From the NCBI GenBank assembly GCA_947470805.1, contig CANIVU010000077.1:1-43021 (forward strand): a stretch of 43,021 nt of DNA, given 5' to 3'. The DNA comes from Acidobacteriota bacterium (GTDB lineage: Bacteria; Acidobacteriota; Terriglobia; Bryobacterales; Bryobacteraceae). The position numbers were made by a program, and so were the translations under genes. Below are positions 4,138 through 33,197 of this stretch, piece by piece (the first letter of the stretch is position 1; each line of letters starts with the position of its first letter). Under the pieces are notes generated by a model, which saw only the letters and a list, made by a program, of their open reading frames with translations, made no database searches and was not told where the DNA came from.

Positions 4138-4157
4138 CGGGCTGCTTCCGCCTCATC

Positions 4158-6857: not shown

Positions 6858-7092
6858 AACACTTCAACCCGGCTTCCGGGGGAAGCGTTGCGCTCAGGGC
6901 TCACAATAACGCGGATACGAAACTCGGAAATCAAAGATACCCTCCGGCTTGAGTGGGCTACAGCGCTGTGTTCTCTTGCTGTCGTGACACGTTTCGCCGC
7001 CTCGGAGCCCGCGATGAACTCGCGAAATCGTGGAGGAGCACTCGCTTGCAGAATAACTCAAATTCCGCCCCGGATGGGATAATCGGCCTTTG
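6858..7092. other. Divergent intergenic region between secreted protein and GT-C genes
   Basis: This 235-bp region separates two divergently transcribed genes and should hold both promoters. For the plus gene the sequence TGGGATAAT ends 9 bp before the ATG. For the minus gene a loose TTGATT/GTTATT pair can be drawn. A short CTTCC/GGAAG hairpin lies near 6880. No copy of the plasmid palindrome or iteron is present. Confidence 0.4.
7075..7083 (+). promoter_or_regulatory. Candidate extended -10 element for the GT-C gene at 7093
   Basis: TGGGATAAT fits an extended -10 (TGn plus GATAAT). A start site about 7 bp downstream would fall at about 7090, making the mRNA nearly leaderless relative to the ATG at 7093. 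No convincing -35 or Shine-Dalgarno sequence is seen. Confidence 0.3.
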
Positions 7093-8643: not shown

Positions 8644-8648
8644 CCGGC

Positions 8649-11540: not shown

Positions 11541-11561
11541 GTCTTTGTCTCCGTATTCTGA

Positions 11562-13082
11562 CTACTGTGGAAACATCACAAACTGCGGCCGGCAGTAGTT
11601 CGCGCTCGTCTCGGCGCCCAGGCTGGCCGGCAGGGTGAATGAGCTCGCCGTACCCGTCGCCACCCCGGCCGCATGACCCCCCAACGTCTTCCCCCCCGGG
11701 AAATAGCTGGGTTGAGATCCGAACAGCGTATGGAGTTCATAAGGCAGCCCGTTATTGGTGCAGCTCACCTGCGCCGTGGCCGTCTGGGAAGCAACAACCA
11801 TCAGATATTCCGTGTCGATCGTCATCGTTACCGCCGCCGGCAGCGCGCAGACAGGAAAACTCCCGCTCACATTCACCGCCGCCGTGGCCGTATTGCACTC
11901 ACTGATCTTGGTCCCGGCGCTCGAATAGATCCCGATCCCCAATGTATCGGTCGATCCGTTCCACGGATACACACCAACGCCAATCCGCCGTACCACCCGG
12001 CTCCGGTCCGGTGTGAACCGGAAGAAGTAGGCGCGCGCCGCCGTCCCACCCAAACTGTAACTGCCCCCCGTGGAACAGTTGTCCAAGGGACACCAAATCT
12101 GCGAAAGCGTCCCCAGCGTCGTCGATCCGCCCCCGGACGAACCGCCGCCGCCGCTCAGCATCCGGAATCCCGTGCCGTCGTACCAGACCGCATACATCCG
12201 CCCGGCCGTCGCATCGCCCGCGGCCAGCGCCGACCCGTCGGCGGTCAACACAGCCACCGCCCCCACCAGATCGACATTCAATGTCGCCGCACCGGTGTTA
12301 GTAACATCCGGCTGCCAAAATAAGCGCATACCCGTAGTGTAGGCGCTTAACGCCGGGGACAACCCGCAGCTGTAGGCCGAAGTCGATCCGCCTGCCGAAA
12401 GACACCGCGTCGGCGCACCCGTCTGGTTGTTCGCCTTGGTCTCCAAAACGGCCGTATCCGCAAGATACTGCATCTCGATTTCACTGCCCGTATCGGTCCC
12501 CACCACCGTCATCGCCGAACCCGCCATCAGGTTCAACGTCGCCCGCGAACCCAACACCGTCCCGCCCGACTTCACCGTCAATGAGCCCGCCCCGCCACCG
12601 CCGCCGCTCACCGTCTGCGGCTCCCACTGTTGCGATGTCGCATTCCACGCCAACGCCTGGCCGCTCCCCGGCGCACTCGCCGCCACATTCCGCCCCTGAA
12701 TCCGGACAACCGAATTGGTGCCCACAGCGCCCGTCACATCCCCCCCAAGGGCCTGCCACTGCGCCGAAGTCCCGTCATTGCCCAACACCTTCCCGGTCTG
12801 CCCCGTAGCGCTCGGCAACGAAGTACCGCCGCTCTGCACCGCCCAGGTATTGGCAGCCACGCACCCGTACAAATTGGCGCCCGCCGCCGCGTTGGACTTG
12901 AAAAACATCTCGCCCGCCGCACACTGCGCCGGTAAAACCGTGCCCGTCTTCACCGGCCGCGTCATCGTTGCATTCGAAAAATCGACATTCTTGCCCTGAG
13001 TACGCAAGTCCAGTTGTGTCTGTTGTCCCCAGCATAGTACCGATACCAGTACGACGAGCCACAGGAAAAAAGCTTTTCCCAT
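11562..13082 (-). CDS. Secreted glycine/serine-rich protein with phage-tail-fibre-like repeats
   Basis: A 506-residue exported protein of unknown function. The frame is open to 13166, but the ATG at 13082 begins MGKAFFLWLVVLVSVLCWG, an obvious signal peptide, so this start is chosen. The body is low in charge and rich in G, S, T, A. It contains segments typical of bacteriophage tail-fibre or collar proteins (GDVTGAVGTNSVVRIQGR; AGDATAGRMYAVWYDGTG), a Gly-rich linker, and a C-terminal beta-rich domain with paired cysteines. A trimeric surface fibre or adhesin that holds or organises the polysaccharide is plausible but unproven. It is the first gene of a unit with 8649-11540. Confidence 0.75.
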   Translation of the reverse strand: MGKAFFLWLVVLVSVLCWGQQTQLDLRTQGKNVDFSNATMTRPVKTGTVLPAQCAAGEMFFKSNAAAGANLYGCVAANTWAVQSGGTSLPSATGQTGKVLGNDGTSAQWQALGGDVTGAVGTNSVVRIQGRNVAASAPGSGQALAWNATSQQWEPQTVSGGGGGAGSLTVKSGGTVLGSRATLNLMAGSAMTVVGTDTGSEIEMQYLADTAVLETKANNQTGAPTRCLSAGGSTSAYSCGLSPALSAYTTGMRLFWQPDVTNTGAATLNVDLVGAVAVLTADGSALAAGDATAGRMYAVWYDGTGFRMLSGGGGSSGGGSTTLGTLSQIWCPLDNCSTGGSYSLGGTAARAYFFRFTPDRSRVVRRIGVGVYPWNGSTDTLGIGIYSSAGTKISECNTATAAVNVSGSFPVCALPAAVTMTIDTEYLMVVASQTATAQVSCTNNGLPYELHTLFGSQPSYFPGGKTLGGHAAGVATGTASSFTLPASLGAETSANYCRPQFVMFPQ

Positions 13083-13270
13083 GAGCTGGCTGGTGTGGCC
13101 GTACGCGCGGCCAACCTCCCCGCAGAAATTGAGTAACCTCATGCCCCGAGTCTGGCAGCGCCGCACCGGCAGTCCTCTGGATCCTATGCGCTATGTATCT
13201 GGAAAACAATGTACTTAAAAATCTTATTATGCTCTTTACACACCACTCGCACCGGTTCATACTGTCTCTG
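13083..13270. other. Divergent leader region between fibre-like protein and transposase fragment
   Basis: 188 bp between divergent genes. Read on the minus strand, the leader of the fibre-like gene contains a GGCCG/CGGCC hairpin (within about 13095-13115). The middle (about 13190-13245) is markedly AT-rich, with CATAAT- and TATTAT-like -10 candidates on the two strands. No inverted-repeat ends typical of an intact insertion sequence are recognisable here. Confidence 0.35.
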
Positions 13271-13844: not shown

Positions 13845-15363
13845 ACAGCTCGAAGCCATCGCCGGCCAGTTCCAACTTCGCCGTTCCGCCCAGGCGAATC
13901 GTCTCAGCCAGTTCCCAGGTCGGCACCCCGCGCTTACGCAATACCTGAAACCGCCACGGCCCGGCTTGCGGCCGGACCCATGGGCGGAACGGCAGGGCCG
14001 GTTCGGCGTGGGCTGTCGCCTGCAGGTTCAACAAAAACTCGCTGGTCCCCAGATAGCGAAGCTCCATCTCCGCCGAAGCCGGATAGGACACAAACGGCAA
14101 CCGCTCCCGATCCCGGTAGTGGTACAGCAGCAGGAACAGGTGGCCGTCACTCACCAGAACCGGACCGGTAAAGGCCGCCTTGTTCGCCCGCAGCCAGTCA
14201 AAGGAAACCGCCGGCTTCTGGTTATGCAGCCATTCCATCCGGATCTGCCGGCCAAGCGATGCCACGCAAAGGACAAGCAGAACAAAACCGGCCGCCGGAG
14301 CGAGCGGCCGCCAGGAATAGGCAACCGCCACGGCCGCCGCCATGCCGATAACGCCGGGCAAGACATATCGCATCACCACCGCCGAACCGGTCATCTTCGC
14401 GGCCAGTGCCCCCACTGCCGGCAATAACAAAAAGCCCGCAATCAGCAGCAATACGGGAGCGGGCAACCGGCCCTCCGACTTCCCTGCCCCGTCCCCCTTC
14501 GAAATCCAGTACAGAACCAGCAACAACACCACCGGCACACCCAAGCCGTCAAACAGCCCCCGGTAAATCTCCGGCAATGGCTCGGCCAAGGTCGCCTGCC
14601 AATGGTGTTCGCCGTAATACTTCGTGCTCGCCGCAATCAGTGGCAGATGCCAGGCAAGGGCAACCACAGGCGACACCAGCGCCGCCCATACCGGCCAATC
14701 CGGCCGCCGCCGCGGCCAGTCTCTCGCGCACTGCGCCAGCGAAAGCGGAACCAGAACAAACACGGCGTAGTAGTGTGTGGCGACCGCAAGGCAGGCCGCA
14801 ACGGCCATCCCGTGAATCGCCAGCATCCGCCGTGCTCCCGTGCTGCGATCCCAGCCCAGCGCCGCCAACGCGATAAACAGACTGAACATCGCATAGGGCC
14901 GGCCTTCCACAAAGTACATAAGCGCCGCCGTGTGACACAGCCCCAGCACCGCGATGCAGCCCGCCATCCGGCCAGCCCAGCCGCGTATCAGCACGTAGAC
15001 AATCCACAACAGCCCGCAGCCAAACAGCGCCGACAGATACCGAAACAGGAACTCCGAGACGCCCAGAACGCGGCCAGCGGCCTTCGCCACCCAGTACAGC
15101 ATCGGGGGCGACATATCGCCGCCGCGGGCCAGCATTTCGAGAACCGACGAGTCCTGAATCGACCGCAAATTGTAGAAACTGATGATCTCGTCAAACCACA
15201 GCGCCCGCCGTCCGATCAGCAGAAAGCTGTGCATGGCCACCAGCAGAATAATCCCCAACACGGCCACATCAGCCCGCCGTCCGGTCATGAGCCATTCATA
15301 CGCGCGCTCACCGGACCGCGCCAACCGTTCCAGCCGTCCCGGCGCCTGGCCGGCATTCTTCAT
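13816..15363 (-). CDS. Polytopic GT-C glycosyltransferase (GT39/ArnT-like), coupled to rep
   Basis: A 515-residue membrane protein with the GT-C signature. After the first transmembrane segment comes RRALWFDEIISFYN, whose DE pair corresponds to the catalytic acid of PMT/ArnT enzymes, then DMSPPMLYW, the conserved aromatic loop. About ten further hydrophobic segments precede a soluble C-terminal periplasmic domain. The ORF extends to 15441, but ATG at 15363 is chosen because it overlaps the stop of the replication initiator as ATGA. That coupling is odd: a glycan enzyme is expressed with rep. It would transfer a sugar from a polyprenyl-phosphate donor in the periplasm. Confidence 0.86.
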   Translation of the reverse strand: MKNAGQAPGRLERLARSGERAYEWLMTGRRADVAVLGIILLVAMHSFLLIGRRALWFDEIISFYNLRSIQDSSVLEMLARGGDMSPPMLYWVAKAAGRVLGVSEFLFRYLSALFGCGLLWIVYVLIRGWAGRMAGCIAVLGLCHTAALMYFVEGRPYAMFSLFIALAALGWDRSTGARRMLAIHGMAVAACLAVATHYYAVFVLVPLSLAQCARDWPRRRPDWPVWAALVSPVVALAWHLPLIAASTKYYGEHHWQATLAEPLPEIYRGLFDGLGVPVVLLLVLYWISKGDGAGKSEGRLPAPVLLLIAGFLLLPAVGALAAKMTGSAVVMRYVLPGVIGMAAAVAVAYSWRPLAPAAGFVLLVLCVASLGRQIRMEWLHNQKPAVSFDWLRANKAAFTGPVLVSDGHLFLLLYHYRDRERLPFVSYPASAEMELRYLGTSEFLLNLQATAHAEPALPFRPWVRPQAGPWRFQVLRKRGVPTWELAETIRLGGTAKLELAGDGFELFNVEIPPGR

Positions 15364-17057
15364 ACGGCGGCCGCGAGCTCGTTGGCCGAGACAGGCGAAA
15401 ACGGAAGCGACGCCTGCCGCGCCAGCCGGCGCAATCGCCACTTTTCAAACGGCGCCACCTGGTGCCGCCGCACCTGCGTCAGGACGGCCGATTCAGCCTC
15501 CTCCTGCTGCAACTGCTTACCCAGCTTCTGAAACCGTTCCTGCGGAGCGATCTGGCTGATTTTTTCCTGGTGTAGCTGTCGCCGCACCTCGTCCGGCATC
15601 TCTGCCAGCAAACGGCGCGCCTCCCGCTCGGCAAACTGCTCGTACTCTCCCAGCAACTCCCGTTCCACCATGTCCTCGTGCTGCCGCATCGCCGCCGCTT
15701 CCCGCCGACGGAAACTGGTGCGCAAGCCGCGCACGAATTCCCCGCCCGCCATTCGTTGCCGGGATTGCGGATCGCGCGCCAGTTTTACGATCAAACCCGC
15801 GCCATTGCGCAACGCCTGCGCCGTGCCTTTTTTCTGCTCGCAATAGCAGAGGCCAATCTCCAGCCAGTCGAGCGTCTCCCGGCAGTCGTCGATCGATGTC
15901 GCCGCGTCAAAACTCTTCTCCAGAATCTGCTGTGCCGCATGGAGCATCACGCCCTCCGCGACAACCCGCACCAACAAGTGCGCGGCCCGTTCCAGCATCT
16001 GAACGCCTTCGGGCGACGACCCTGCCCGCTTCCCCATTGCCGCAGCCAGTTCGGCAGGCAAACCAGCCGCCTGCAGTCCCTGCACGCTGCTCTGAAACCG
16101 GGATTCGTCGTCCATCCCGGCGACGCCACTCTCCAGCAACTGCCGCTCCGGCCTGTAATTGGGGTGCCGGCGAATCGCCATTCGCCACTCTTTTTCCGAA
16201 ACGATGTGCCAGGAACCGACCACTTCTTCCCGTTGCAACTGCTCCAAAGTCGGCTCCAGCGTCTGGAGCAGGCGAGAAAAGTACTTCGGCGGCTTGATGA
16301 TGCCCAGATGTTCGGTCGACAGCTTCCGCGCGTCGATCAACACCACGTCAAACCGTTCAAACGCCACCGCCAGATACCGGTACAGGTACTTGGTCGTCAA
16401 CCCATCCAGCATCATGTACCGCTTGGCGTCGACGAGCCGGAAAAACCCGCTGTCCATCGACTGGATGATCTTGTCGGTCCACGTAATCGACCCCAGACAC
16501 CGCCCCGTCTTCCGGTCCAGCGAAAAGCTGGCCTCCTGGAACACGTTCAGCCACTTCACGTCTTCGCTCTGGTCGGTCTGCATGATAGCCCGAAATCGCA
16601 GGGCGATAAACCGGTCCATGGCCAGTTTCAGCCGGTTGTAGAACTTGCCATGCACCCCGGCGATATTCAAAATCCGGGCGATTTCCCTGCCCTGAAAATG
16701 CACTGTCTTGGCGAACTGGTTGCGGAAGGTCAGCACACCCAGAGCGACGAAGATATCCAGATCCTGCTCGGTCGGCAGCCCCAGTTCGCTGTTGCCCTGT
16801 ACCTGCCAGATCACCTGCACTTCAGTCCCATCGGGGAGGGTTTTTGACCCCCTCACCTCGATCGAGGCGACGCGCTTGCCTACCCGTTGCTCCAAAACGG
16901 CAAACGGGATCGACCCCAGATTTTCTTCTTCAACACACAAGTTGAAGAGTGTTCCGCTATGAGCAGCCGGAGTGTAGGAACCTGCGTAGAGTGTCTCCAT
17001 CAGCGGTGACCCCGGAACCTGAAACATTCCCGAGCCTTTCTGGTTTTTACCATACAT
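15360..17057 (-). CDS. Plasmid replication initiator protein (RPA-like)
   Basis: A protein of about 565 residues resembling the 'replication initiator protein A' (RPA) family of plasmids. It has GSKTLPDGTEVQVIW, GLPTEQDLDIFVALGVL and a winged-helix-like core (FQGREIARILNI, then FYNRLKLAMDRF), followed by a long charged helical tail (ELLGEYEQFAEREARRLLAE). RPA proteins bind iterons and open the origin. The frame is open to an ATG at 17093, but those first codons (MCLTVNL) are themselves an iteron (17077-17092), so the ATG at 17057 is preferred; starts at 17027 and 17000 are also possible. The origin lies immediately upstream, and the stop overlaps the start of a GT-C gene. Confidence 0.82.
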   Translation of the reverse strand: MYGKNQKGSGMFQVPGSPLMETLYAGSYTPAAHSGTLFNLCVEEENLGSIPFAVLEQRVGKRVASIEVRGSKTLPDGTEVQVIWQVQGNSELGLPTEQDLDIFVALGVLTFRNQFAKTVHFQGREIARILNIAGVHGKFYNRLKLAMDRFIALRFRAIMQTDQSEDVKWLNVFQEASFSLDRKTGRCLGSITWTDKIIQSMDSGFFRLVDAKRYMMLDGLTTKYLYRYLAVAFERFDVVLIDARKLSTEHLGIIKPPKYFSRLLQTLEPTLEQLQREEVVGSWHIVSEKEWRMAIRRHPNYRPERQLLESGVAGMDDESRFQSSVQGLQAAGLPAELAAAMGKRAGSSPEGVQMLERAAHLLVRVVAEGVMLHAAQQILEKSFDAATSIDDCRETLDWLEIGLCYCEQKKGTAQALRNGAGLIVKLARDPQSRQRMAGGEFVRGLRTSFRRREAAAMRQHEDMVERELLGEYEQFAEREARRLLAEMPDEVRRQLHQEKISQIAPQERFQKLGKQLQQEEAESAVLTQVRRHQVAPFEKWRLRRLARQASLPFSPVSANELAAAV

Positions 17058-17076
17058 TCGCCCCGGACGATAGAGA

Positions 17077-17092
17077 TTTACGGTCAAGCACA
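17077..17092 (+). repeat. Iteron copy overlapping the upstream rep start codon
   Basis: TTTACGGTCAAGCACA, a one-base variant of the origin iteron. It covers most of the ATG at 17093, so Rep bound here would sit on its own upstream start or promoter, consistent with autorepression. Confidence 0.7.
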
Positions 17093-17210
17093 TGGCCCGG
17101 TCAGCGACCCGCCTGACGCGAACGATTTTTGCCTTTCCATTCCCCGCCTCTATTCGTAAACCCGAGCATTTCGGCGTTTGGTTATTGGGATCTGGTATTG
17201 GTTCTGTAGT

Positions 17211-17250
17211 TGTATATATATTATATACGTTCTTGTTTTTATAAGAACCT
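17211..17250. other. AT-rich unwinding segment with hairpin
   Basis: A run of TATATATATTATATA-type sequence in an otherwise GC-rich plasmid, followed by GTTCTT (17229-17234) and AAGAAC (17243-17248) around an 8-bp T-rich loop. Its position between rep and the iterons fits a DNA unwinding element. Confidence 0.6.
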
Positions 17251-17292
17251 TGTTTTCAGTAGTTTACGGTATATTTGGCCCGCGAGCGTCCA

Positions 17293-17364
17293 TGTGCTTC
17301 GCCGTAAATCCGCCGCAAGTGATTGAAACCAAAGGGCGAAGTGGGCTATGTGCTTCGCCGTAAG
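17293..17364 (-). repeat. Two inverted iterons
   Basis: TGTGCTTCGCCGTAAA at 17293-17308 and TGTGCTTCGCCGTAAG at 17349-17364 are reverse-orientation copies of the iteron, 56 bp apart. They lie between the AT-rich segment and the direct iteron array. Confidence 0.7.
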
Positions 17365-17408
17365 CCGGAAGTAGTTGAAAACACTAGCGTTATTTTCCGG
17401 CTTTGCCG

Positions 17409-17417
17409 TTTTCCACA
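17409..17417 (+). other. DnaA-box-like site
   Basis: TTTTCCACA differs by one base from the consensus TTATCCACA and lies 6 bp before the direct iteron array. A single near-match could be chance, but the location is right for an initiator site. Confidence 0.45.
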
Positions 17418-17422
17418 GAACG

Positions 17423-17544
17423 CTTACGGCCAAGCACACACCAGAGGGGTTGTTTTTACGGCGAAGCACACACGGATGGGCCTGTTTTTACGCCCAAGCA
17501 CACGGGATTTACGGCGAAGCACATCCCATTTACGCCCAAGCACA
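17423..17544 (+). repeat. Five direct iterons (TTTACGSCSAAGCACA)
   Basis: Five 16-bp copies start at 17423, 17455, 17487, 17508 and 17529. Start-to-start distances are 32, 32, 21 and 21 bp, that is three or two helical turns, so all copies face the same side of the helix. Variants are GGCC, GGCG and GCCC in the central four bases. This is the expected architecture of an iteron-controlled plasmid origin and a probable binding array for the Rep at 15360-17057. Confidence 0.8.
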
Positions 17545-17646
17545 TGCATGTGGCATCGCCACCCGCCCCGCCATCGGCGGCAATCGGCTGAATACATCGG
17601 GCGAACCATTCCCCGCGCCGGCGACTCAGCCCATATCGATCGCTGC

Positions 17647-17752
17647 AACCTGACTACTGTGGTCAAGTAATCTAGTCCGTTCCGCAAGCCGCAGGATCCA
17701 GGAACACCTGTCGGTAAATGGCCCCCCTGCCCCGGATCTCGATCTCCGCGAT
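17647..17752 (+). repeat. Imperfect direct repeat, copy 1 (pairs with 17833-17972)
   Basis: Begins AACCTGACTACTGTGGTCAA and ends with a CCCCGGATCTCGAT-like segment. Copy 2 has the same order of blocks: palindrome, GCAAG, GATCCxGGAAC, GGTAAA, CCCCGGATxTCGAT. Non-coding. Confidence 0.55.
17651..17665. promoter_or_regulatory. 15-bp palindrome (candidate centromere/operator site)
   Basis: TGACTACTGTGGTCA, one base from a perfect 7-1-7 palindrome. It is a solitary member of the family scattered from here to 22045, with one more copy at 32439. Confidence 0.65.
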
Positions 17753-17832
17753 GTGACCACTCTTCACCAAGAGTCGCAAGTGGGCTTGCGGGTGTGCCAA
17801 TCGCTCAACCGCTAACCGGTATCCATCCCGCC

Positions 17833-17972
17833 AACCTGACCACAGTGGTCAAGTGACTTGCGCCTCTCGCAAGGCCCAAGATCCGGGAACGTGGCGGCCA
17901 GTTCGCCGGTACCGGGCGGCGGATGTCGAGGCCGGTAAACAGTTCCCCGCCCCCGGATGTCGATCACGCGAT
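17833..17972 (+). repeat. Imperfect direct repeat, copy 2
   Basis: Second copy of 17647-17752, longer by about 34 bp through an internal GC-rich insertion. Non-coding. Both copies begin at a 15-bp palindrome, suggesting that the repeats spread by duplication together with the site. Confidence 0.5.
17837..17851. promoter_or_regulatory. 15-bp palindrome, perfect copy
   Basis: TGACCACAGTGGTCA is a perfect odd palindrome (7-1-7) of the plasmid family. Confidence 0.65.
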
Positions 17973-18087
17973 TCAACTCGCCAGACCTAGGGCCGCGCCC
18001 AGGAACGCAGCCACCTCCCGGTAACGTCCGGTAAGCCGTACGTTCAACCAAGCCACGGCCCGGATTAAACCGTTGATCTGCTTTACC

Positions 18088-18146
18088 TGACGACTGTAGT
18101 CAAGTAGCACTCTGCTATAGTCAAGAGCGCTAAGCTACAGTAGTCA
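18088..18146 (+). promoter_or_regulatory. parA promoter region flanked by two palindromes
   Basis: TGACGACTGTAGTCA (18088-18102) and AAGCTACAGTAGTCA (18132-18146) flank a TATAGT -10 candidate (18116-18121), which itself sits in a degraded copy (18109-18123). A protein bound to the pair would cover the promoter, the usual arrangement for autorepression of a par operon. The parA ATG is 37 bp further on. Confidence 0.55.
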
Positions 18147-18182
18147 GGTTGAAATGCGGGGGATAGGGAGAGAAACGCTACG

Positions 18183-18965
18183 ATGATTCGCTTGATGATC
18201 GGCAATCAGAAGGGCGGTGTAGGAAAGACGACGACCGCCATTTCCCTGGCCCGCTGCTTCGCCGGCCGTGGTCTGCGGACCCTGCTCGTCGATGCCGATC
18301 CGCAAGGCTCCATTGCCGTCACTCTCCGCCAGCGGCCCGAACGCTACCTGGCCGATTTCATCCTGTCCCAACTTCCCCTCGAAGACTGCGTCACCGGCGT
18401 TGCCCCGGACATGGATCTGCTCTGCGGCAACCGGGAAACCAGTGCCATGGAGCAACGCCTGCTGGCCTCCTACGGCCGCGAGTACGTCTTTCAGAAGGCC
18501 TTCAAGCCCTACCTCGGCCGCTACGACGCCATCATTGTCGACATCGCGCCCTCCATTTCCCTGCTCCAGGCCTGCGCCATGGTCTTCTGCGAACAGATCG
18601 TTATCCCGGTTTCCACCGATACGCTCAGCGTCTCCGGCGCTGGCGCCACGATCCTATCGGCGAAAGCGATCGCTGAAAGTCTGAACTGCCCCATCGCCGT
18701 GGCCGGCCTGCTGCCGACCATCGTCAACCGCAGTTACGGGTTAACCGGCGTCGTGCTGCAGATGATGGAGCAGTTGGGGGCGGCCTACTCGATTCCCGTG
18801 CTTCCCGAAATCCGCACCGACCAGGCGGTGGCCCGCGCCGCCCGCGCCCACCAGATGCTGGCCGATGTCGACCCGCGTTCCAAGGCGTTGCAGGACTACG
18901 AGGCCGCCGCGACCGTCCTTCTGAAATCGCTCGGATGGAAGAAGCAAAAGGGGACGCATGGCTAA
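18183..18965 (+). CDS. parA: ParA-type partition ATPase
   Basis: A 260-residue ParA/MinD-superfamily ATPase that segregates the plasmid by forming gradients on the nucleoid. The deviant Walker A is KGGVGKTT (10-17), Walker A' is VDADPQGS (36-43), and the Walker B region is IIVDIAPS (about 116-123). There is no N-terminal DNA-binding extension, so it is a small type Ib-like ParA that would rely on a separate centromere-binding partner. A purine-rich GGGAGAG precedes the ATG at 18183. The last 8 bp overlap the next gene (18958), which encodes a winged-helix protein and is the natural partner. Expression is probably repressed through the palindromes at 18088-18146. Confidence 0.92.
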   Translation: MIRLMIGNQKGGVGKTTTAISLARCFAGRGLRTLLVDADPQGSIAVTLRQRPERYLADFILSQLPLEDCVTGVAPDMDLLCGNRETSAMEQRLLASYGREYVFQKAFKPYLGRYDAIIVDIAPSISLLQACAMVFCEQIVIPVSTDTLSVSGAGATILSAKAIAESLNCPIAVAGLLPTIVNRSYGLTGVVLQMMEQLGAAYSIPVLPEIRTDQAVARAARAHQMLADVDPRSKALQDYEAAATVLLKSLGWKKQKGTHG

Positions 18966-19569
18966 CCAGGCGAAAAAAGGAAGCCGCTCGACTCCCGCGT
19001 TCGATCCGCTCGAACTGGATGATCTCATTCACATTCCCGCGGTCGGAACGGGCGTCTCCTCCCACCTGCTCCAACGCCAGCCAGCGCAAGTGACTACTGT
19101 AGTCAAGAAGGAAAAGGCCACTGTAGTCATTTCAAAGCCGCCCACACCGCCCGCCGCCGCTGTCCTCTGGAAAACCGAAGCCGGAACGTTCGTCACGCCG
19201 GTCAAAATACGGCCCGTCCAGGTGATCGACGATGTCCTCGCCGCGGCCGAAAAGACGGCACTCGAATACCTGACGCGCGCGGCCGCCGGTGGCCAATTGG
19301 TCCAGGCTGGCTACGAAGAGATCCTTCGGGGGACCGGGTTGTCCCGCAAGACCGTGCAACGGACGATCGCGAAGCTGCTCGATAAGGACTTTCTGATAAT
19401 CGAGACGGCGGCCAACATCTACACCCGCGAACCAACCGTCTACCGGCTGGTGGATCCCGATACGGTCATGCGCCAGCATGAGCGGAAGGGCCGCCGGTTT
19501 GTCGTGCATATTGGCCCAGGTGTCGTGTACGCCACCCCGGCCGCCACCAACCAGACCACTGTGGAATAG
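18958..19569 (+). CDS. Winged-helix DNA-binding protein, probable centromere-binding partner of ParA
   Basis: A 203-residue protein. A basic, Pro/Thr-rich N-terminal 75 residues is followed by a winged helix-turn-helix (about 95-160): ALEYLTRAAAGGQ, then GYEEILRGTGLSRKTVQRTI, then DFLIIETA. It is not a classical ParB: no CTPase/ParB-N motif is visible, and no ribbon-helix-helix. Its 8-bp overlap with parA and the surrounding palindromes make it the best candidate for the centromere-binding protein and par autorepressor. Three family sites lie within or at the end of its coding sequence, where they encode TTVV, ATVV and TTVE. Role in partition is inferred from position. Confidence 0.75.
   Translation: MANQAKKGSRSTPAFDPLELDDLIHIPAVGTGVSSHLLQRQPAQVTTVVKKEKATVVISKPPTPPAAAVLWKTEAGTFVTPVKIRPVQVIDDVLAAAEKTALEYLTRAAAGGQLVQAGYEEILRGTGLSRKTVQRTIAKLLDKDFLIIETAANIYTREPTVYRLVDPDTVMRQHERKGRRFVVHIGPGVVYATPAATNQTTVE
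19091..19129. promoter_or_regulatory. Palindrome pair, 24-bp spacing, inside the winged-helix gene
   Basis: TGACTACTGTAGTCA (19091-19105, perfect) and AGGCCACTGTAGTCA (19115-19129). Start-to-start distance is 24 bp. Confidence 0.65.
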
Positions 19570-19615
19570 AGTCACCTGGCTACAGTAGTCATTTATATAA
19601 GGACCACTGTAGTCA
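19553..19615. promoter_or_regulatory. Palindrome triplet, 24-bp spacing, at the end of the par operon
   Basis: AGACCACTGTGGAAT (19553), TGGCTACAGTAGTCA (19577) and GGACCACTGTAGTCA (19601), each exactly 24 bp after the previous one. The first overlaps the stop of the winged-helix gene. Confidence 0.65.
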
Positions 19616-19830
19616 ACTCCCGTCGAAGGGCGCATATACCGTAGCCGGACCGAGAGGGCCCGGGCGGGCGGTGTTGGCGGATTCGGAGGACCACGCCGGT
19701 GTTTCTGCCTGAGAAACGGGGTGAAGGCCAGCGCAGGCCGCCACCGTCCTGCGTCCGCAGTGAGAAACGCCCGCATCCGCTGTGCCCCAAAACGGATCCG
19801 GGGTTGCCTCCGGCAGGCGCTACCAGCGTA

Positions 19831-19885
19831 TGGGTTTGGCCGTAAAAGACTACAGTGGCAAGGAAGGACATGACTACTGTAGTCA
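19831..19885 (+). repeat. Composite module 1: iteron-like site plus palindrome pair
   Basis: TGGGTTTGGCCGTAAA (19831-19846, two mismatches to the inverted iteron) abuts AGACTACAGTGGCAA (19847-19861). The perfect TGACTACTGTAGTCA (19871-19885) follows at 24-bp spacing. Confidence 0.6.
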
Positions 19886-20001
19886 GGTGTATCTCCAGCA
19901 ACGGGATGAGCTGGCGGCAAAAGGGGCTCACCCGCTCCTGTTCACTGTTCGGCCCTGCACCGCACTTCGTCTCTGGGCGGCGACGTTTCGCACAACGGGC
20001 A

Positions 20002-20061
20002 TGTGCTTGGCCGTAAATCTCTCGGCCACAGTAGCCGGGAGCGACTTGGCTACTGTAGTCA
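20002..20061 (+). repeat. Composite module 2: iteron plus palindrome pair
   Basis: TGTGCTTGGCCGTAAA (20002-20017), then CGGCCACAGTAGCCG (20023-20037) and TGGCTACTGTAGTCA (20047-20061), the last two at 24-bp spacing. Same order and orientation as module 1. Confidence 0.6.
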
Positions 20062-20077
20062 AGTAACGCTGGCCGCC

Positions 20078-21130
20078 TCAGATCGGCACATCATGGCTGG
20101 CGCTGTCGGCCGCCGAAATCCGGCGCTTATCGTAGATCTGCGTCGTCGTAATATGCCGGTGGCCCAGCAGATCCTGCACCTTACGGATATCGACGCCCGC
20201 TTCCAGCAACAGCGTCGCCGTCGTCGCCCGCAGGCTGTGCGGCGTGTACAAACCCGGCGCGGCCCCGGGCAGCCGGGAGAGATAGCGCATCAGCAATCGG
20301 TAGAGTGTCGCCGGGTTCATCGGGGCAGGGGACAGCGTCTGGCTCCGGCTGCCGGACCGGGCGCGAAACAGCGGGCCGGCGGAGAGCCCGGCCACCTGCA
20401 GGTACTCGGTCAGCGCTTGGGCGGCCTGGAAGTGCAGCCCGATGGTCCGGATCTTCCCGCCCTTTTCGGCCATCCGGATGGTCGACTGCTCCTCGTCCTG
20501 ATGAAAGTCGGCCACCTGCAGACGGCAAACCGCCCCGATCCGGGCGCCCGAATAGAGCATGAACTTCAATATGGCCCGGTCCCGGTAGTCGAGCACCGAT
20601 TCGCCAGTCGGCAGGTTCACCAGTTGCCGCGCCCGAGTGGCCGACAGCGCCCGGGTCTCGTCGCGAGCGTCGCTCGATTCCCGGGAGATGAATTGCGCGT
20701 GAGCCGGGTTGGGAACCGTGATCGGCAACCGCATCTCCGCCGCCGCCGCCGCCAGGTACTTATAGAAACTGGAGAGCGAGGCAATCCGCCGGTTGATCGT
20801 CTTCGGCGCCGCGCCGCGCTCCTGCAGACCATCCCGGAACCCGAGCACGTCCTTGATCCCGGTGCGCAGCAATTCCGCCGCATCAAAAGGCCAGGACCAT
20901 CCCATATGTTTCACAAAAGACATCACATCTTCGCGATAGGCGCGCTGCGTGTGGGCGGACGGACGGCGCCGTACCCAGGCATCAAAGATGCTCTCAATCG
21001 AATCGTAGAACTGTTCCACCTGCTGCACGGCAACCGGCGTCAGGTGTCCGGCCAGGATCGGCGGCACCGGGCGGGCACGGGGTTCAATGGCAACGGCGCC
21101 GGTGGCGGGGGAGGGAACTGGCGTGCTCAC
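20078..21130 (-). CDS. Tyrosine recombinase (XerC/D-like), probable plasmid dimer resolvase
   Basis: A 350-residue site-specific recombinase. An SAM-like core-binding domain (about 38-130) is followed by the catalytic domain with the full set of active-site residues: R197 (SGARIGA), K226 (KGGKIR), H298 and R301 (PHSLRAT), H324 (LLGHRH) and nucleophile Y333 (QIYDKRR). Start is GTG at 21130, with no clear Shine-Dalgarno sequence. On a circular plasmid the expected job is resolving multimers. A 28-bp dif-like inverted repeat lies only 6 bp upstream of the start (21136-21163), a natural substrate. An integrase role is possible but no att duplication or tRNA target is seen. Confidence 0.92.
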   Translation of the reverse strand: MSTPVPSPATGAVAIEPRARPVPPILAGHLTPVAVQQVEQFYDSIESIFDAWVRRRPSAHTQRAYREDVMSFVKHMGWSWPFDAAELLRTGIKDVLGFRDGLQERGAAPKTINRRIASLSSFYKYLAAAAAEMRLPITVPNPAHAQFISRESSDARDETRALSATRARQLVNLPTGESVLDYRDRAILKFMLYSGARIGAVCRLQVADFHQDEEQSTIRMAEKGGKIRTIGLHFQAAQALTEYLQVAGLSAGPLFRARSGSRSQTLSPAPMNPATLYRLLMRYLSRLPGAAPGLYTPHSLRATTATLLLEAGVDIRKVQDLLGHRHITTTQIYDKRRISAADSASHDVPI

Positions 21131-21135
21131 TTATA

Positions 21136-21163
21136 AAGCAAGATAACAGATTTTATCTTGCAC
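21136..21163. other. dif-like recombination core next to the recombinase gene
   Basis: Left arm AAGCAAGATAA (21136-21146), 6-bp spacer CAGATT, right arm TTATCTTGCAC (21153-21163). The inner 9 bp of each arm are perfect inverted repeats. 11-6-11 with inner ATAA/TTAT ends is the layout of Xer dif/cer cores. It also overlaps the likely recombinase promoter, so an operator role is an alternative. Confidence 0.55.
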
Positions 21164-21208
21164 GAAAAGAACATTGCCAAGAAGGAGCGCGCGAGGAGCA
21201 AAAACTGC

Positions 21209-21958
21209 CTACTTCCCGTACGTCCGGCGGATGATCAGCACATCGAAAAACGCCCGGACAAAATCCCGGGGCCGCAGACGCGAGCCATCCACATCGCGCC
21301 ACTGGTGAAGAGGGAACTCGTAAATCGCCTTTTCCACCACCGGCAGGTCGTAGCCCTTCTGCCGGATGAAGCGGGCGATGATCTCCACGTCGAATACCCA
21401 CCGGGAGCAGAACGGCGTAGCAAACAGTTCGGCCAACCCCGGTGTCACGCGAAAGATCTTGGCGCCGCACTGGGTGTCGTAAATCGGCAGACGCAGCACG
21501 GTGGAAACGACCGTTGCAAACACCCGGCCCAGATAATGGCGCGAGGCGCGCCGTTCGATTGCCCGGCCCAACAGTTTCACGCGTGAACCGAACACCATGG
21601 CGATCTCCGGCCGCGCGGCCAGAATCGCCGACAGCTGTTCGATGGCTTCGAGCGGCGTCGCCAGATCGGCATCCCAGAACCCGGCATACAGACACCCGGG
21701 CCGCTCCAGCGCCTTCAACATCCCGGCGCGCACGGCCTCGGCCTTGCCGCCGTTCTGCGGCATGTCGAGAACTTCAATCCGGTCCGGTTGGCTTTGGCTC
21801 GCCCGCCGCAACACCGCGAGCGTTCCATCCTTACTGCCGTCGTTGACCAGCAGGAAATGAATCGCCGGCGTCGCGGCCGCGAAGGCGGTGAAGGTGTCGT
21901 AGGGAAACCGCCGCTCCTCGTTGTAGCAGGGAACGACGATTGTGCAAGGCGGGTTCAT
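21209..21958 (-). CDS. Polyprenyl-phosphate glycosyltransferase (DPM1/ALG5-like GT2)
   Basis: A 249-residue GT2 with the pattern of dolichyl/polyprenyl-phosphate sugar synthases: VVPCYNEE (8-15), VNDGSKDGT (38-46), FWDADLATP with DAD at 96-98, and the YDTQCGAKIFR segment. It lacks a C-terminal membrane anchor. Such enzymes make polyprenyl-phosphate-glucose or -mannose, the donor used by GT-C enzymes; the plasmid has four GT-C-like proteins (7093, 13816, 31579, 40612), so a supply role is a reasonable inference. ATG at 21958 is chosen because VVPCYNEE then lies at the usual distance; GTG at 21970 is an alternative. It is the last gene of the long minus operon, separated from the previous gene by a palindrome pair. 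Confidence 0.88.
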   Translation of the reverse strand: MNPPCTIVVPCYNEERRFPYDTFTAFAAATPAIHFLLVNDGSKDGTLAVLRRASQSQPDRIEVLDMPQNGGKAEAVRAGMLKALERPGCLYAGFWDADLATPLEAIEQLSAILAARPEIAMVFGSRVKLLGRAIERRASRHYLGRVFATVVSTVLRLPIYDTQCGAKIFRVTPGLAELFATPFCSRWVFDVEIIARFIRQKGYDLPVVEKAIYEFPLHQWRDVDGSRLRPRDFVRAFFDVLIIRRTYGK

Positions 21959-22006
21959 GAGCAAAGCCACATTCTTTCTATTGTGATGCAGGGAGCAAGA
22001 GAAGCG

Positions 22007-22045
22007 AGACTACAGTAGACACGTACCACCTGACTACTGTGGTCA
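22007..22045. promoter_or_regulatory. Palindrome pair, 24-bp spacing, between two GT genes
   Basis: AGACTACAGTAGACA (22007-22021) and TGACTACTGTGGTCA (22031-22045), in the 89-bp gap between the GT2 genes at 21209 and 22048. Position suggests either another partition site or control of the downstream GT2. Confidence 0.65.
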
Positions 22046-30158: not shown

Positions 30159-31589
30159 TTAGAACTGGAAGTAGATAAACGATTGCGGTTGGCCGCCGGC
30201 AAAGATGGCGGCATAGAGCATGGCCGCGTATATGGCGGTTCGGAGTTCAGCCGGGATCCAGCTGGCCGACAGCCAGAACAGCCGCCCGCTCCACACCTGG
30301 ATCACCTGCACCAGCACCAGCGGCACCGAATAGAACAGCACCAGCGTCGCCGTATCGGTATTGAAACCCTGCCAGGGTGTGGCGAGCGCCGCGGTGAACG
30401 ACATCACCTGCCCCAGGCTCGACGCCCGGAACAGCAGCCAGCCGTACAGCGTGAACTGGAACATCACCAGGATCTGCACGCCGGCAATGGCCTGCCGCAT
30501 CCAGCCCGGTTTCCCCTCCAGCGTCTTTTCCCACGGCCCGATCCAGGCCCGGTGCACGATCAGCAACGTGCCGTGATAGATGCCCCAGAGGATGAAATTC
30601 CACGCCGCTCCGTGCCAGAATCCGCCGATCACCATCGTCAGAAACAGGTTGCGATAGGTGGCGAACGCGCCGCCCCGGTTGCCGCCCAAAGAGATGTAGA
30701 GATAGTCGCGCAGCCAGCTCGACAGGCTGATGTGCCAGCGCGACCAGAACTCCTGCGGGTTCCTGGCCGCGTAGGGCAGGTTGAAGTTCAGCATGAACTC
30801 AAAGCCCATCAGTTTGGCCACGCCGCGGGCGATATCGGTATAGCCGGAAAAGTCGCAGTAGATCTGCACCGCAAAGGCCAGACACGCCGTCCACACCTCG
30901 CCGCCGGCCGCCGATTGTTTGGAAAAGGTGGCATCCACCAGCGGGGACAAATGATCGGCGATGAAGACCTTTTTGAAGAAGCCCCAGCACATCAGATGGA
31001 TGCCTTCGAGCACTTGTTCCCGCGTGGTGTGCCGCGGCTGGATCACCTGCGGCAGCAGCGAAGAGGCGCGCTGAATCGGCCCGGCCACCAGATGCGGGAA
31101 GTAGAGCACGGCCAGCAGGAAGTCCCAGAAACTGCTGATGGCGTGCAACTCGCCGCGGTAGACGTCGATCGTGTAACTCAGCGCCTGGAAGGTGTAGAAG
31201 CTGATGCCCACCGGCAGGATCACGCTCAAGGTCACCGGGTCGGGATGGAAGCCCATCGTCTCCAGCAGGTGGTGCAGGTTCTCGCTGAAGAAGTTGAAGT
31301 ACTTGAAGAAGCCCAGCAGCCCCAGATTGGTGATCACACTCAACTGCAGATAGGGCCGCATGTCCTTCTGCGTCTTGCCCTCGTGAATCATCCGCTCCAT
31401 GCGGCTGGCGCAGAAGAAGTCCATGACCGTGGAAAACAGTAGCGGCGCCAGGAATCGCCAGTCCCAGCAAGCGTAGAAAAACAGACTGGCCGCCAACAGT
31501 ATACGGTTCTGCGCGCGGTGTGGCAGCAGATAGTAGAGCGCCAGCACAGCGGGCAGGAAAAGTACAAATGAGAAGGAGTTAAAAAGCAC
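30159..31589 (-). CDS. MBOAT O-acyltransferase (AlgI/DltB-like)
   Basis: A 476-residue polytopic protein with strong AlgI/DltB features: MLFNSFSFVLFLPAVL start, GISFYTFQALSYTIDVYRGE (129-148), CDFSGYTDIARG, NPQEFWSRWHISLSSWLRDYLY (His286) and GGFWHGAAW with the catalytic His326. MBOAT proteins carry acyl groups across the membrane from an intracellular thioester to an extracellular acceptor. In the same operon lie an SGNH protein, an ACP and an FkbH loader, so the thioester donor may be the FkbH-loaded ACP. The gene overlaps the upstream GT-C stop by 11 bp. Confidence 0.94.
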   Translation of the reverse strand: MLFNSFSFVLFLPAVLALYYLLPHRAQNRILLAASLFFYACWDWRFLAPLLFSTVMDFFCASRMERMIHEGKTQKDMRPYLQLSVITNLGLLGFFKYFNFFSENLHHLLETMGFHPDPVTLSVILPVGISFYTFQALSYTIDVYRGELHAISSFWDFLLAVLYFPHLVAGPIQRASSLLPQVIQPRHTTREQVLEGIHLMCWGFFKKVFIADHLSPLVDATFSKQSAAGGEVWTACLAFAVQIYCDFSGYTDIARGVAKLMGFEFMLNFNLPYAARNPQEFWSRWHISLSSWLRDYLYISLGGNRGGAFATYRNLFLTMVIGGFWHGAAWNFILWGIYHGTLLIVHRAWIGPWEKTLEGKPGWMRQAIAGVQILVMFQFTLYGWLLFRASSLGQVMSFTAALATPWQGFNTDTATLVLFYSVPLVLVQVIQVWSGRLFWLSASWIPAELRTAIYAAMLYAAIFAGGQPQSFIYFQF

Positions 31590-33096
31590 GGCAGTCGCGG
31601 CAGCGGAATAGGAGGAATGGGCCGATTTGTCGCCAGCAGGCGTAGCGCCCGGCGAGCGCCTGTTTCTTATCGCGCAACTCGGGAGTGTCCCACAGATGCG
31701 GAGCGGCTACGGCGGACTCGCCGCAGGCCTTGGTGAAGAGAGGAATTTCGTTCTCGGTGCGAATGATCGCCAGCGGCGGTGTCTTGGCCAGGAACCCGTC
31801 CAGCATCGGCCCGGCCAGCCGCTGGTAAGTCGTCTGGTCGTGGAAGGAGACGGTATGGAACACCGCCGTCGCCGGCGGACGGTTCAGCCGGAACCACAAA
31901 TCGCGCGGCATCAGCCCCCAGGTCAACGGCAGCACCGGTCCGGCTGCCTCCATGGCGGCGCTCAACAGCTCCGGGCTCGCCAGTTCGGTGTAGCGGTACC
32001 GCACGCCCCGGCTGGCTTCCAGCAACAGCATCGCCCCAGCCAACCCGGCCAGCGCCACGCCCGCTATCCCGGCCTTCGTCCGGAACCCGGTCTCCAACAG
32101 CGCCTGTCCCAACAGCGCCGTCAGCGCCGCCGCCGGCACCAGCATCGTCACCGTGTAGTGGTGATAGAACTTGGCCGAAAACGCCCCGGCCAGCCATTCC
32201 AGCAGGAACCACAGCACCAGCCCGGCCGCCGCCGTCCGGTACGCCCCGCACCGCACCCAGCCCGCAGCCGCCCCGGCCAGCGCCAGCACCAGCAACCCGA
32301 AGCGCATCCAGTGCCCCAGTTGCTGCGCCGCCACTATCAACTTGGCCGCCACCGGCGAGGCCGAATACAGAAAATTGAAGGTAAACGCGGCGTCGATGTA
32401 GTCTTTCCACAGCCCGGCGCTCACCAGCGGACCCAACATGACTACAGTAGCCAGGAGGAACCCGGCCCCTGTCATCACCGTCTGCCGCACCACCCGGCCC
32501 GGCTCCGCCCGCAGCGCCCACGCCATCCAGCACAGCCAGAACAGCAGCGCCCCGGCGTTGTTCGGCCGCAGCTGAAACAGCGCCGCCCCGGCCGCGCCCG
32601 CTACCACCGCCGCCATCGTGCTCCGCAGCCGCAGCCAGGCCAGCGCAAAGATCGTCGCCTGCAAGCCCACCGAAAACCCTTCGGTCATATTAGGCGTCAC
32701 CAGCAGGCACAACACCCCCAACAACCCGGCCGCCTGACCGCCCACCGCCGCCGCCCCTCCGCACAGCCGCCGCACCGCGGCCACGAAGAAAATCCATCCG
32801 GCCGCCTGCATCACGCCCGCCACGGCCCAGACGCCCCATGCCGAACCCGGCGTCAATCGTGTACCTAGGCCATTCAAAAAGAACAATAAAGGCGGTTTAT
32901 GATCCCAGATATCCCGGTACAAACGCGTTCCCGTTCCCACCTGCTGGCCGATGTAATAGAACAGGCTGGCGTCCCCGGCCAGCAAACTCCACTGGCCGCT
33001 CCACAGCCAGCTCGCCCACGCCCCGGCGGTTAGAACAAGACTAATCGTCATCCACCACAAATGGCTTCTGGCGTCGTTTGTGGCGTTCGGCGTCAT
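31579..33096 (-). CDS. Polytopic GT-C glycosyltransferase (GT39/ArnT-like)
   Basis: A 505-residue membrane protein, first gene of the long minus operon. After the first transmembrane helix comes LLAGDASLFYYIGQQV with an acidic residue at the GT-C catalytic position, then RDIWDHKPPLLFFLN, a classic ArnT/PMT loop. About ten transmembrane segments and a C-terminal periplasmic domain follow. The frame is open to 33147; ATG 33096 (MTPNATNDAR) is chosen because the N-terminus then precedes the first membrane helix directly and leaves a 101-bp divergent promoter region to the ABC permease gene. One copy of the plasmid palindrome lies within the coding sequence (32439-32453). Confidence 0.86.
   Translation of the reverse strand: MTPNATNDARSHLWWMTISLVLTAGAWASWLWSGQWSLLAGDASLFYYIGQQVGTGTRLYRDIWDHKPPLLFFLNGLGTRLTPGSAWGVWAVAGVMQAAGWIFFVAAVRRLCGGAAAVGGQAAGLLGVLCLLVTPNMTEGFSVGLQATIFALAWLRLRSTMAAVVAGAAGAALFQLRPNNAGALLFWLCWMAWALRAEPGRVVRQTVMTGAGFLLATVVMLGPLVSAGLWKDYIDAAFTFNFLYSASPVAAKLIVAAQQLGHWMRFGLLVLALAGAAAGWVRCGAYRTAAAGLVLWFLLEWLAGAFSAKFYHHYTVTMLVPAAALTALLGQALLETGFRTKAGIAGVALAGLAGAMLLLEASRGVRYRYTELASPELLSAAMEAAGPVLPLTWGLMPRDLWFRLNRPPATAVFHTVSFHDQTTYQRLAGPMLDGFLAKTPPLAIIRTENEIPLFTKACGESAVAAPHLWDTPELRDKKQALAGRYACWRQIGPFLLFRCRDCRAF
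32439..32453. promoter_or_regulatory. Isolated 15-bp palindrome inside the GT-C gene
   Basis: TGACTACAGTAGCCA, one mismatch from a perfect palindrome of the family and about 10 kb from the nearest other copy. A weak 9-of-15 match lies exactly 24 bp further on (32463-32477). Confidence 0.5.
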
Positions 33097-33197
33097 CAGG
33101 AAGGTCACTAAGCAGTATATCGGTCTTTGGTTTATATCTCTGTACACAGGCCCGCTCCGGCACGCCTATGCTACTTTCAAGAAGACCCTCAAGAAAC

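What the first reader, a model, noticed from the sequence alone, without database searches (positions are those of the whole stretch)
17651..22045. A family of about sixteen 15-bp palindromes, mostly paired at exactly 24 bp, as a new type of centromere or operator
Copies of TGACTACTGTAGTCA (7-1-7 odd palindrome) occur at 17651, 17837, 18088, 18132, 19091/19115, 19553/19577/19601, 19847/19871, 20023/20047, 22007/22031 and 32439. Five clusters share an invariant 24-bp step although the DNA between sites is unrelated and some lie in coding sequence. They surround parA and a winged-helix gene, and do not resemble the canonical chromosomal parS (TGTTTCACGTGAAACA).
Basis: partly seen in the sequence, partly recalled or inferred. 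Interest (0 to 1): 0.78.

Follow-up and report, generated by a model that had tools for sequence, protein, structure and literature searches.

The report
Plasmid centromere inside its binder's gene
A soil-bacterium plasmid carries a set of near-identical mirror-image DNA sites around, and partly inside, the genes that most likely pull plasmid copies apart at cell division, and many related bacteria have the same arrangement with a different site.

Summary
The window is a circular plasmid (149-bp identical contig ends). Up to 3 mismatches the motif has 25 strand-matches against 0.21 expected. In the 8.7-Mb genome 11 of 12 places within 2 mismatches are here. Most sites surround parA and the next gene; six neighbouring steps are exactly 24 bp.

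New: this is one member of a family. Of 49 loci with ParA at least 40% identical, all from the same class, 40 have a winged-helix ORF starting within 60 nt of parA's end. Most loci carry an odd palindrome, differing between lineages, repeated every 15, 18, 21 or 24 bp in the linkers flanking the winged-helix domain. In 28 of 38 loci synonymous-codon shuffles do not reproduce it. Motifs learned only from coding linkers recur in the same locus's flanks (27 sites against 2.7; 0 of 5000 permutations), mostly at the same step.

Best reading: a ParA partition module whose ParB is a winged-helix protein without ParB's CTPase domain, and whose centromere is partly inside the binder's gene. Closest precedent: SCP2 parT, with one such site. 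Main rival: intragenic replication iterons, as in lambda O. Binding is untested.

The parts
18183..18965 (+). parA: Walker-type ATPase, 260 aa
   Evidence: AAA_31 1.7e-33, CbiA 1.1e-19; relatives with solved structures, best 6.8e-26, including Soj/ParA chains
18958..19569 (+). winged-helix partner gene, 203 aa; proposed centromere-binding protein; overlaps parA by 8 nt
   Evidence: only sub-threshold wHTH matches in Pfam; family HMM 8.2e-34, domain 19204-19536 (the window sequence is in the training set); 96% relative over residues 1-172 in a second MAG
17651..17665 (.). palindrome TGACTACTGTGGTCA, upstream of parA
   Evidence: also a palindrome in the sister plasmid, with base changes inside the site
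17837..17851 (.). palindrome TGACCACAGTGGTCA, upstream of parA
18088..18146 (.). parA-proximal cluster: copies at 18088 and 18132 with a half-site at 18109 between; possible operator
   Evidence: three base differences in the sister plasmid; no sigma-70 promoter match
19091..19129 (.). palindrome pair, 24-bp step, inside the winged-helix CDS (linker before the domain)
   Evidence: with 7-bp arms 0 of 60 synonymous shuffles reach the score, with 5-bp arms 17 of 60 do
19553..19615 (.). triple at 24-bp steps across the end of the winged-helix CDS (19553 is a half-site only)
19847..19885 (.). pair, 24-bp step (19847 weak); abuts a reversed Rep iteron copy at 19831-19846
20023..20061 (.). pair, 24-bp step (20023 weak); next to a reversed Rep iteron copy at 20002-20017
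22007..22045 (.). palindrome pair, 24-bp step, between two glycosyltransferase genes
32439..32453 (.). lone distant palindrome inside a mannosyltransferase-like gene (31579-33147 -)
15360..17093 (-). rep: RPA-like putative replication initiator, 577 aa (separate from the module)
   Evidence: PF10134 2.8e-4, below the curated cut-off; relatives at 52-57% in other genomes
17077..17544 (.). proposed replication origin: 8 copies of TTTACGGCSAAGCACA (up to 3 mismatches, both orientations) and a 44% GC stretch at 17100-17400
   Evidence: function inferred
20078..21130 (-). tyrosine recombinase
   Evidence: Phage_integrase 1.9e-26

Best explanation
A plasmid partition module. ParA is the motor. The winged-helix protein encoded directly after it takes the place of ParB, without a ParB CTPase domain: it binds as a dimer to each 15-bp odd palindrome, neighbouring dimers stack at a fixed step (24 bp here; 15, 18 or 21 in relatives), and its basic N-terminal tail stimulates ParA. 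The clustered sites, partly in the binder's own gene and partly in the flanks, form the centromere; the copies just before parA would also repress the operon. Shown from sequence: the sites, the step, their confinement, DNA-level palindromes in coding linkers of most relatives, and the within-locus match between coding and flank sites. Inferred: binding, dimerisation, stacking, ParA stimulation, segregation, repression.
For: A winged-helix ORF starts within 60 nt of parA's end in 40 of 49 loci with ParA at 40% or more; none of 5 loci with ParA at 31-36% has a profile hit. Palindromes at DNA level: 28 of 38 loci beat all 60 synonymous shuffles at one arm length at least, 12 at both. Coding-derived motifs of 26 loci find 27 own-flank sites against 2.7 expected from other loci's flanks, 0 of 5000 permutations; without the window 19 against 2.6. 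A flank step equals a coding step in 6 of 7 loci that have a flank step under 40 bp. A Rep-like gene lies on the same contig in 14 of 48 module contigs. Sites are clustered on two circles. Between iterons and parA the sister plasmid keeps 55 of 60 shared-site bases without gaps, against 334 of 459 non-site bases with 145 gapped columns.
Against: No binding or stability data. The window gene has only two full coding sites. In 10 of 38 loci no palindrome beats the shuffles, and 13 of 26 passing loci show no strong flank site. Three of 49 loci have 2 kb or more of downstream DNA and no profile hit. PHROGs link the window protein (1 of 14 scanned) weakly to phage replication initiators, best 5.3e-5. 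On the circular G149 plasmid no initiator was recognised by Pfam in 30 of 40 listed ORFs scanned; on 34 of 48 module contigs no Rep-like match was found. Site similarity tracks domain similarity only weakly (Mantel r 0.18, 44 of 5000). The structure prediction failed (pLDDT 37).
Confidence: 0.7

Rival explanations
1. Replication initiator with intragenic iterons, as in phage lambda O: the winged-helix protein opens an origin lying within its own gene, and ParA is only a neighbour.
For: Weak PHROG matches of the window protein to replication initiation families, including an O-like one at 1.2e-3. Lambda iterons lie inside gene O at steps of 20, 24 and 23 bp. No Pfam-recognised initiator in 30 of 40 listed ORFs of the G149 circle, and none of the Rep-like families searched on 34 of 48 module contigs.
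Against: This plasmid has its own RPA-like Rep with an iteron array and an AT-rich stretch away from the palindromes; 14 contigs carry both module and a Rep-like gene. No detectable similarity of the family profile to lambda O (hhalign probability 0.1 and 0.2%). The window protein lacks the C-terminal domain of longer relatives.
Confidence: 0.13
2. Operators of a local repressor: the winged-helix protein regulates the par operon and other plasmid genes through the palindromes.
For: Two copies and a half-site lie within 95 bp before parA and differ by three bases in the sister plasmid; a pair lies just before a glycosyltransferase gene that starts at 21970 on the minus strand.
Against: Arrays inside coding linkers are frequent in relatives; no sigma-70 match in 17040-20110, though other promoter types are not covered. 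Repression may be a second role.
Confidence: 0.1
3. Coding repeats only: the linkers are repetitive low-complexity peptides and the palindromes are a by-product.
For: Coding steps are multiples of 3 and the linkers are repeat-rich; 10 of 38 loci do not beat the shuffles.
Against: Synonymous shuffles keep the peptide but not the palindrome score in 28 of 38 loci; the same motifs and steps occur outside the gene; in the window most sites are outside the gene.
Confidence: 0.03

Closest known systems
SCP2 ParA-ParT-parS (Streptomyces coelicolor; PMC12260392)
   Same: ParA with a ParB-like partner lacking the CTPase domain; a palindromic parS inside the coding sequence of the partner's gene
   Different: One 18-bp site there; here, in loci that pass the shuffles, 2 to 16 coding sites at a recurrent step plus flank copies in half of them, and different palindromes in different lineages. 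Homology with ParT not tested (SCP2 record not held)
Canonical type I ParABS
   Same: Walker ParA, partner gene directly after it, palindromic sites clustered nearby
   Different: No ParB_N or HTH_ParB match in the window protein or in 10 relatives; no canonical parS
pNOB8 AspA-ParB-ParA (archaeal plasmid; PMC5120986, passages)
   Same: Winged-helix protein on a palindromic putative centromere, forming multi-dimer arrays on DNA
   Different: AspA binds ParB, not ParA, and its 23-bp site is upstream of its gene; no AspA among five profile matches to solved structures up to E 5
Phage lambda O and its origin
   Same: Array of repeats inside the gene of the protein that binds them, steps of 20-24 bp, bound by dimers (PMC6022878, passages)
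   Different: Replication initiator, no ParA; no profile similarity

Membership tests
Type I ParABS | Walker-type ParA ATPase | tested here: met
   AAA_31 1.7e-33; solved ParA/Soj chains
Type I ParABS | partner gene encoded next to parA | tested here: met
   adjacent winged-helix ORF in 40 of 49 loci; that it binds centromere DNA is untested
Type I ParABS | ParB CTPase and HTH_ParB domains in the partner | tested here: not met
   no such Pfam match for the window protein at E up to 1 or 10 relatives at E up to 0.1
Type I ParABS | canonical 16-bp parS | tested here: not met
   0 matches within 3 mismatches in the window
Type I ParABS | partner binds the sites and stimulates ParA | not testable with these tools
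   needs biochemistry
SCP2 ParATS | sequence or fold homology to ParT | not tested
   SCP2 record not in the collections under the accession tried
[quoted passage not shown]
   one site there, a pair here and arrays in relatives; that these sites are parS is inferred
Winged-helix centromere binders (AspA; TubR named from recall) | recognisable sequence homology to solved members | tested here: not met
   none among the five profile matches up to E 5; fold comparison not possible
Lambda O-type initiators | homology to lambda O | tested here: not met
   hhalign probability 0.1 and 0.2%; weak PHROG O-like match, 1.2e-3, for the window protein only
Lambda O-type initiators | binding-site array inside own gene | tested here: inconclusive
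   arrays present in coding linkers, reference array; binding by the own product unknown

The most novel reading that the evidence does not exclude
A class of plasmid and integrative-element partition systems in Acidobacteria in which centromere and centromere-binding gene are largely one piece of DNA: flexible linkers are written in codons that spell a lineage-specific palindrome array at one of four steps (15, 18, 21, 24 bp), so that binder and centromere travel together and diverge together, giving each plasmid lineage its own segregation identity.
Probability: 0.5. Interest if true: 0.78.

Novelty: new variant of a known kind. Interest (0 to 1): 0.64.

Why it matters
If right, it adds a branch without the ParB CTPase to bacterial DNA partition and offers some 26 natural loci (a few sharing one site) in which binder and candidate site can be paired, for working out how centromere specificity and array spacing evolve. 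Because site and binder share one stretch of DNA, specificity could change without separating the two, which bears on plasmid compatibility. Relatives were found so far in one class of Acidobacteria only.

Tried and rejected
Plasmid, phage and viral collections: no relative of the winged-helix protein in 72,556 plasmid records with two queries; ParA relatives there and in phages were below 60% identity, the listed ones near 30%; the family profile hit nothing in 75 viral loci brought in by a ParA alignment. So the family was assembled from unnamed whole genomes. A first motif finder that mixed coding and flank DNA gave motifs I judged wrong in some loci (for example G121, G185) and was replaced by the linker-only design. 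Its Mantel test (r 0.195, 30 of 5000, 29 loci) was redone on 26 loci (r 0.178, 44 of 5000): the four closest pairs share or nearly share sites, mid-range pairs mostly do not. Specificity residues could not be read from the alignment. The promoter scan was empty. A count wrongly took 262 columns of unequal sequence start for gaps; it was corrected (147 gapped non-site columns, not 409).

Rows dropped: of the ParA rows, G021 was not taken (contig ends at parA). In the 38-locus tests the sister L025 (near-duplicate), G423 (odd domain coordinates) and G494 (profile hit not adjacent) were left out. Five ParA loci at 31-36% identity served as outgroup. Flanks may include pieces of neighbouring genes.
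Full report
THE OBSERVATION. All sixteen stated coordinates hold the 7-1-7 palindrome or a degenerate copy. Counting both strands up to three mismatches there are 25 matches where shuffles give 0.21. Copies within two mismatches on one strand at least are 17651, 17837, 18088, 19091, 19577, 19601, 19871, 20047, 22007, 22031 and 32439; 18132 and 19115 have three; 19847, 20023 and especially 19553 are weak. Six neighbouring steps are exactly 24 bp, three of them resting on a weak copy. In the 8.7-Mb genome the motif within two mismatches occurs at 11 places here and one elsewhere; at three mismatches the 25 matches outside this contig are no more than chance (the pattern read backwards gives 40).

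THE NEIGHBOURHOOD. parA (18183-18965) is a Walker-type ATPase. The next gene (18958-19569) overlaps it, has only sub-threshold winged-helix matches in Pfam and no solved structure below E 0.28. To the left lies an RPA-like Rep (15360-17093, minus strand; Pfam 2.8e-4, below the cut-off) with eight iteron-like repeats at 17077-17544 and an AT-rich stretch at 17100-17400. Two further iteron copies lie beside the pairs at 19847 and 20023. The scanned remainder is a tyrosine recombinase and mainly polysaccharide genes.

THE SISTER PLASMID. A 16.4-kb contig in another species of the genus carries Rep (99%), ParA (98%) and the first 172 residues of the winged-helix protein (96%) before it ends. From the iterons to parA (17545-18182) the four shared sites have 55 of 60 identical bases and no gaps, against 334 of 459 aligned non-site bases plus 145 gapped columns (which corrects). 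One site is present in only one of the two, and changes inside sites leave them largely palindromic.

THE FAMILY. A ParA relative in the same genus at 44% (G014) revealed a winged-helix gene packed with a different palindrome at 18-bp steps. ParA matches were found at E 1e-32 in 20 of 399 class genomes, at E 1e-50 in 36 of 237 family genomes, 4 of 200 of a second family and 5 of 297 in a phylum draw, all five in the same class; the window's genome is among them. I took 54 loci. Of 49 with ParA at 40% or more, 41 have a hit of the winged-helix profile and 40 an ORF with it starting within 60 nt of parA's end. Of the eight without a hit, five run off the contig within 1 kb and three (G200, G468, G524) do not. 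None of the five loci with ParA at 31-36% has a hit. The profile was built from 14 of these proteins, which match by construction.

ARCHITECTURE. The proteins share a basic N-terminus and a short helix-like motif, a variable linker, the winged-helix domain and, in many, a second linker and a C-terminal domain that the window protein lacks. Of 10 relatives scanned, nine have no Pfam match at E up to 0.1 and one a sub-threshold match.

SITES INSIDE THE GENE. In the linkers of 38 genes (24.6 kb) perfect 7-bp arms occur 26 times at a gap of 1, and odd gaps far exceed even ones; direct repeats peak at 24 bp (326, of which G634 alone gives 113) and 18 bp (289), with lesser peaks at 15 and 21. In parA plus domain DNA no offset exceeds 63. 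The commonest step differs by locus: 24 in the window, G141, G303, G121, G185, G435, G441, G478 and G634; 18 in G014, G168, G149 and others; 21 in G483 and one G529 module; 15 in G489, G445, G484 and one G503 module. To ask whether DNA or peptide is kept I permuted synonymous codons, holding peptide and codon usage. With 40 shuffles and 7-bp arms 27 of 38 loci exceed all; with 60 shuffles 26 do, and 28 do at one of two arm lengths, 12 at both. The window's own coding pair passes only with 7-bp arms (0 of 60; 17 of 60 with 5-bp arms). Ten loci fail at both. Motifs and arm lengths were chosen by score in real and shuffled DNA alike.

SITES OUTSIDE THE GENE. Motifs learned from coding linkers only were scanned in the flanks. 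The 26 loci have 27 sites in their own flanks against 2.7 expected from other loci's flanks; none of 5000 permutations reaches 27 (maximum 17). The window gives 8 of the 27; without it 19 against 2.6, 0 of 5000. Half of the loci (13 of 26) have such a site. Seven loci have two flank sites within 40 bp; in six a flank step equals a coding step (24, 18, 18, 18, 15, 15; G168 has also a 24), in the seventh it is 36 against 18. A step kept in DNA outside the gene points to protein contacts rather than codons. On a second circular plasmid (G149, 95-bp overlap; the other nine contigs tested show none) all eight copies of its motif within two mismatches lie in 4.8 kb of 55 kb, around the module.

WHERE THE MODULE LIVES. 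Rep relatives or RPA-type genes lie on the same contig in 14 of 48 module contigs, the window and its sister included; 40 genomes were searched with the Rep protein and 35 with PF10134, and two of the 14 (G425, G460) rest on matches below the cut-off. In G303 the module sits in a 5.6-Mb contig beside mnmE, a tyrosine integrase and a relaxase-like gene (1.1e-4, just below the cut-off), so integrative elements probably use it too. G149 is a conjugative plasmid with a TrwC relaxase and transfer genes.

MECHANISM. I favour partition (0.70). The winged-helix protein takes the ParB place: dimers on palindromes, stacked at a fixed step, with a basic tail reaching ParA. Contact, dimer and tail are inference, the last by analogy with ParT, whose N-terminal peptide binds and activates ParA (PMC12260392; abstract and outline, passages, and part 1 of the Discussion read). 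The strongest rival is an initiator with intragenic iterons. For it: weak PHROG matches of the window protein, lambda's four sites inside gene O at steps of 20, 24 and 23 bp, and no initiator recognised on the G149 circle (30 of 40 listed ORFs scanned besides parA and its partner). Against it: the separate Rep and iterons here, the 14 contigs with both, and no profile similarity to lambda O.

WHAT IS KNOWN. SCP2 ParT is the nearest published case I found: a partner without CTPase domain, with one 18-bp parS in its own gene. AspA of pNOB8 is a winged-helix protein on a 23-bp palindrome (PMC5120986, passages). Lambda O is described as binding each of four repeats as a dimer, with the origin inside O (PMC6022878, passages). 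Eight library searches listed no paper that I recognise as about this family or about arrays of lineage-specific centromere sites inside a partition gene; the library holds open-licence papers only, and all other papers were seen as listings.

VERDICT. Hence a new variant of a known kind, interest 0.64.

Noticed in passing
window 19831-19846 and 20002-20017: Two reversed Rep iteron copies lie directly beside palindrome pairs 19847/19871 and 20023/20047, as if replication and partition sites were interleaved.
   Followed up: partly
window 18183-18965 against family ParAs (alignment A4): The consensus of 11 family ParAs reads NQRGGVAKTT where the window has NQKGGVGKTT: the lysine that I recall as the signature lysine of this Walker motif is arginine in the majority.
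   Followed up: no
L092 (G520:C31): Two divergently oriented ParA/winged-helix modules sit about 3.6 kb apart with an RPA-type gene between them.
   Followed up: no
L213-L215 and L049 (G149:C9, 55-kb circle): Conjugative plasmid with TrwC, TrbI and VirB8 matches, a RepB_primase protein, an MmeI-type enzyme and a ParB_N protein away from parA; no initiator recognised among the scanned ORFs.
   Followed up: partly
L051 (G303) 4137-13159: Copy of the module in a 5.6-Mb contig beside mnmE with a tyrosine integrase and a relaxase-like gene: probably an integrated mobilisable element.
   Followed up: partly
window 109-42192: Many genes of the plasmid look like polysaccharide biosynthesis and export (glycosyltransferases, PMT-like proteins, ABC-2 and Wzt-like transporter); G168's locus also carries a Wzi-like capsule gene.
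   Followed up: no
window 32439-32453: A lone strong palindrome about 10 kb from the cluster, inside a mannosyltransferase-like gene.
   Followed up: no
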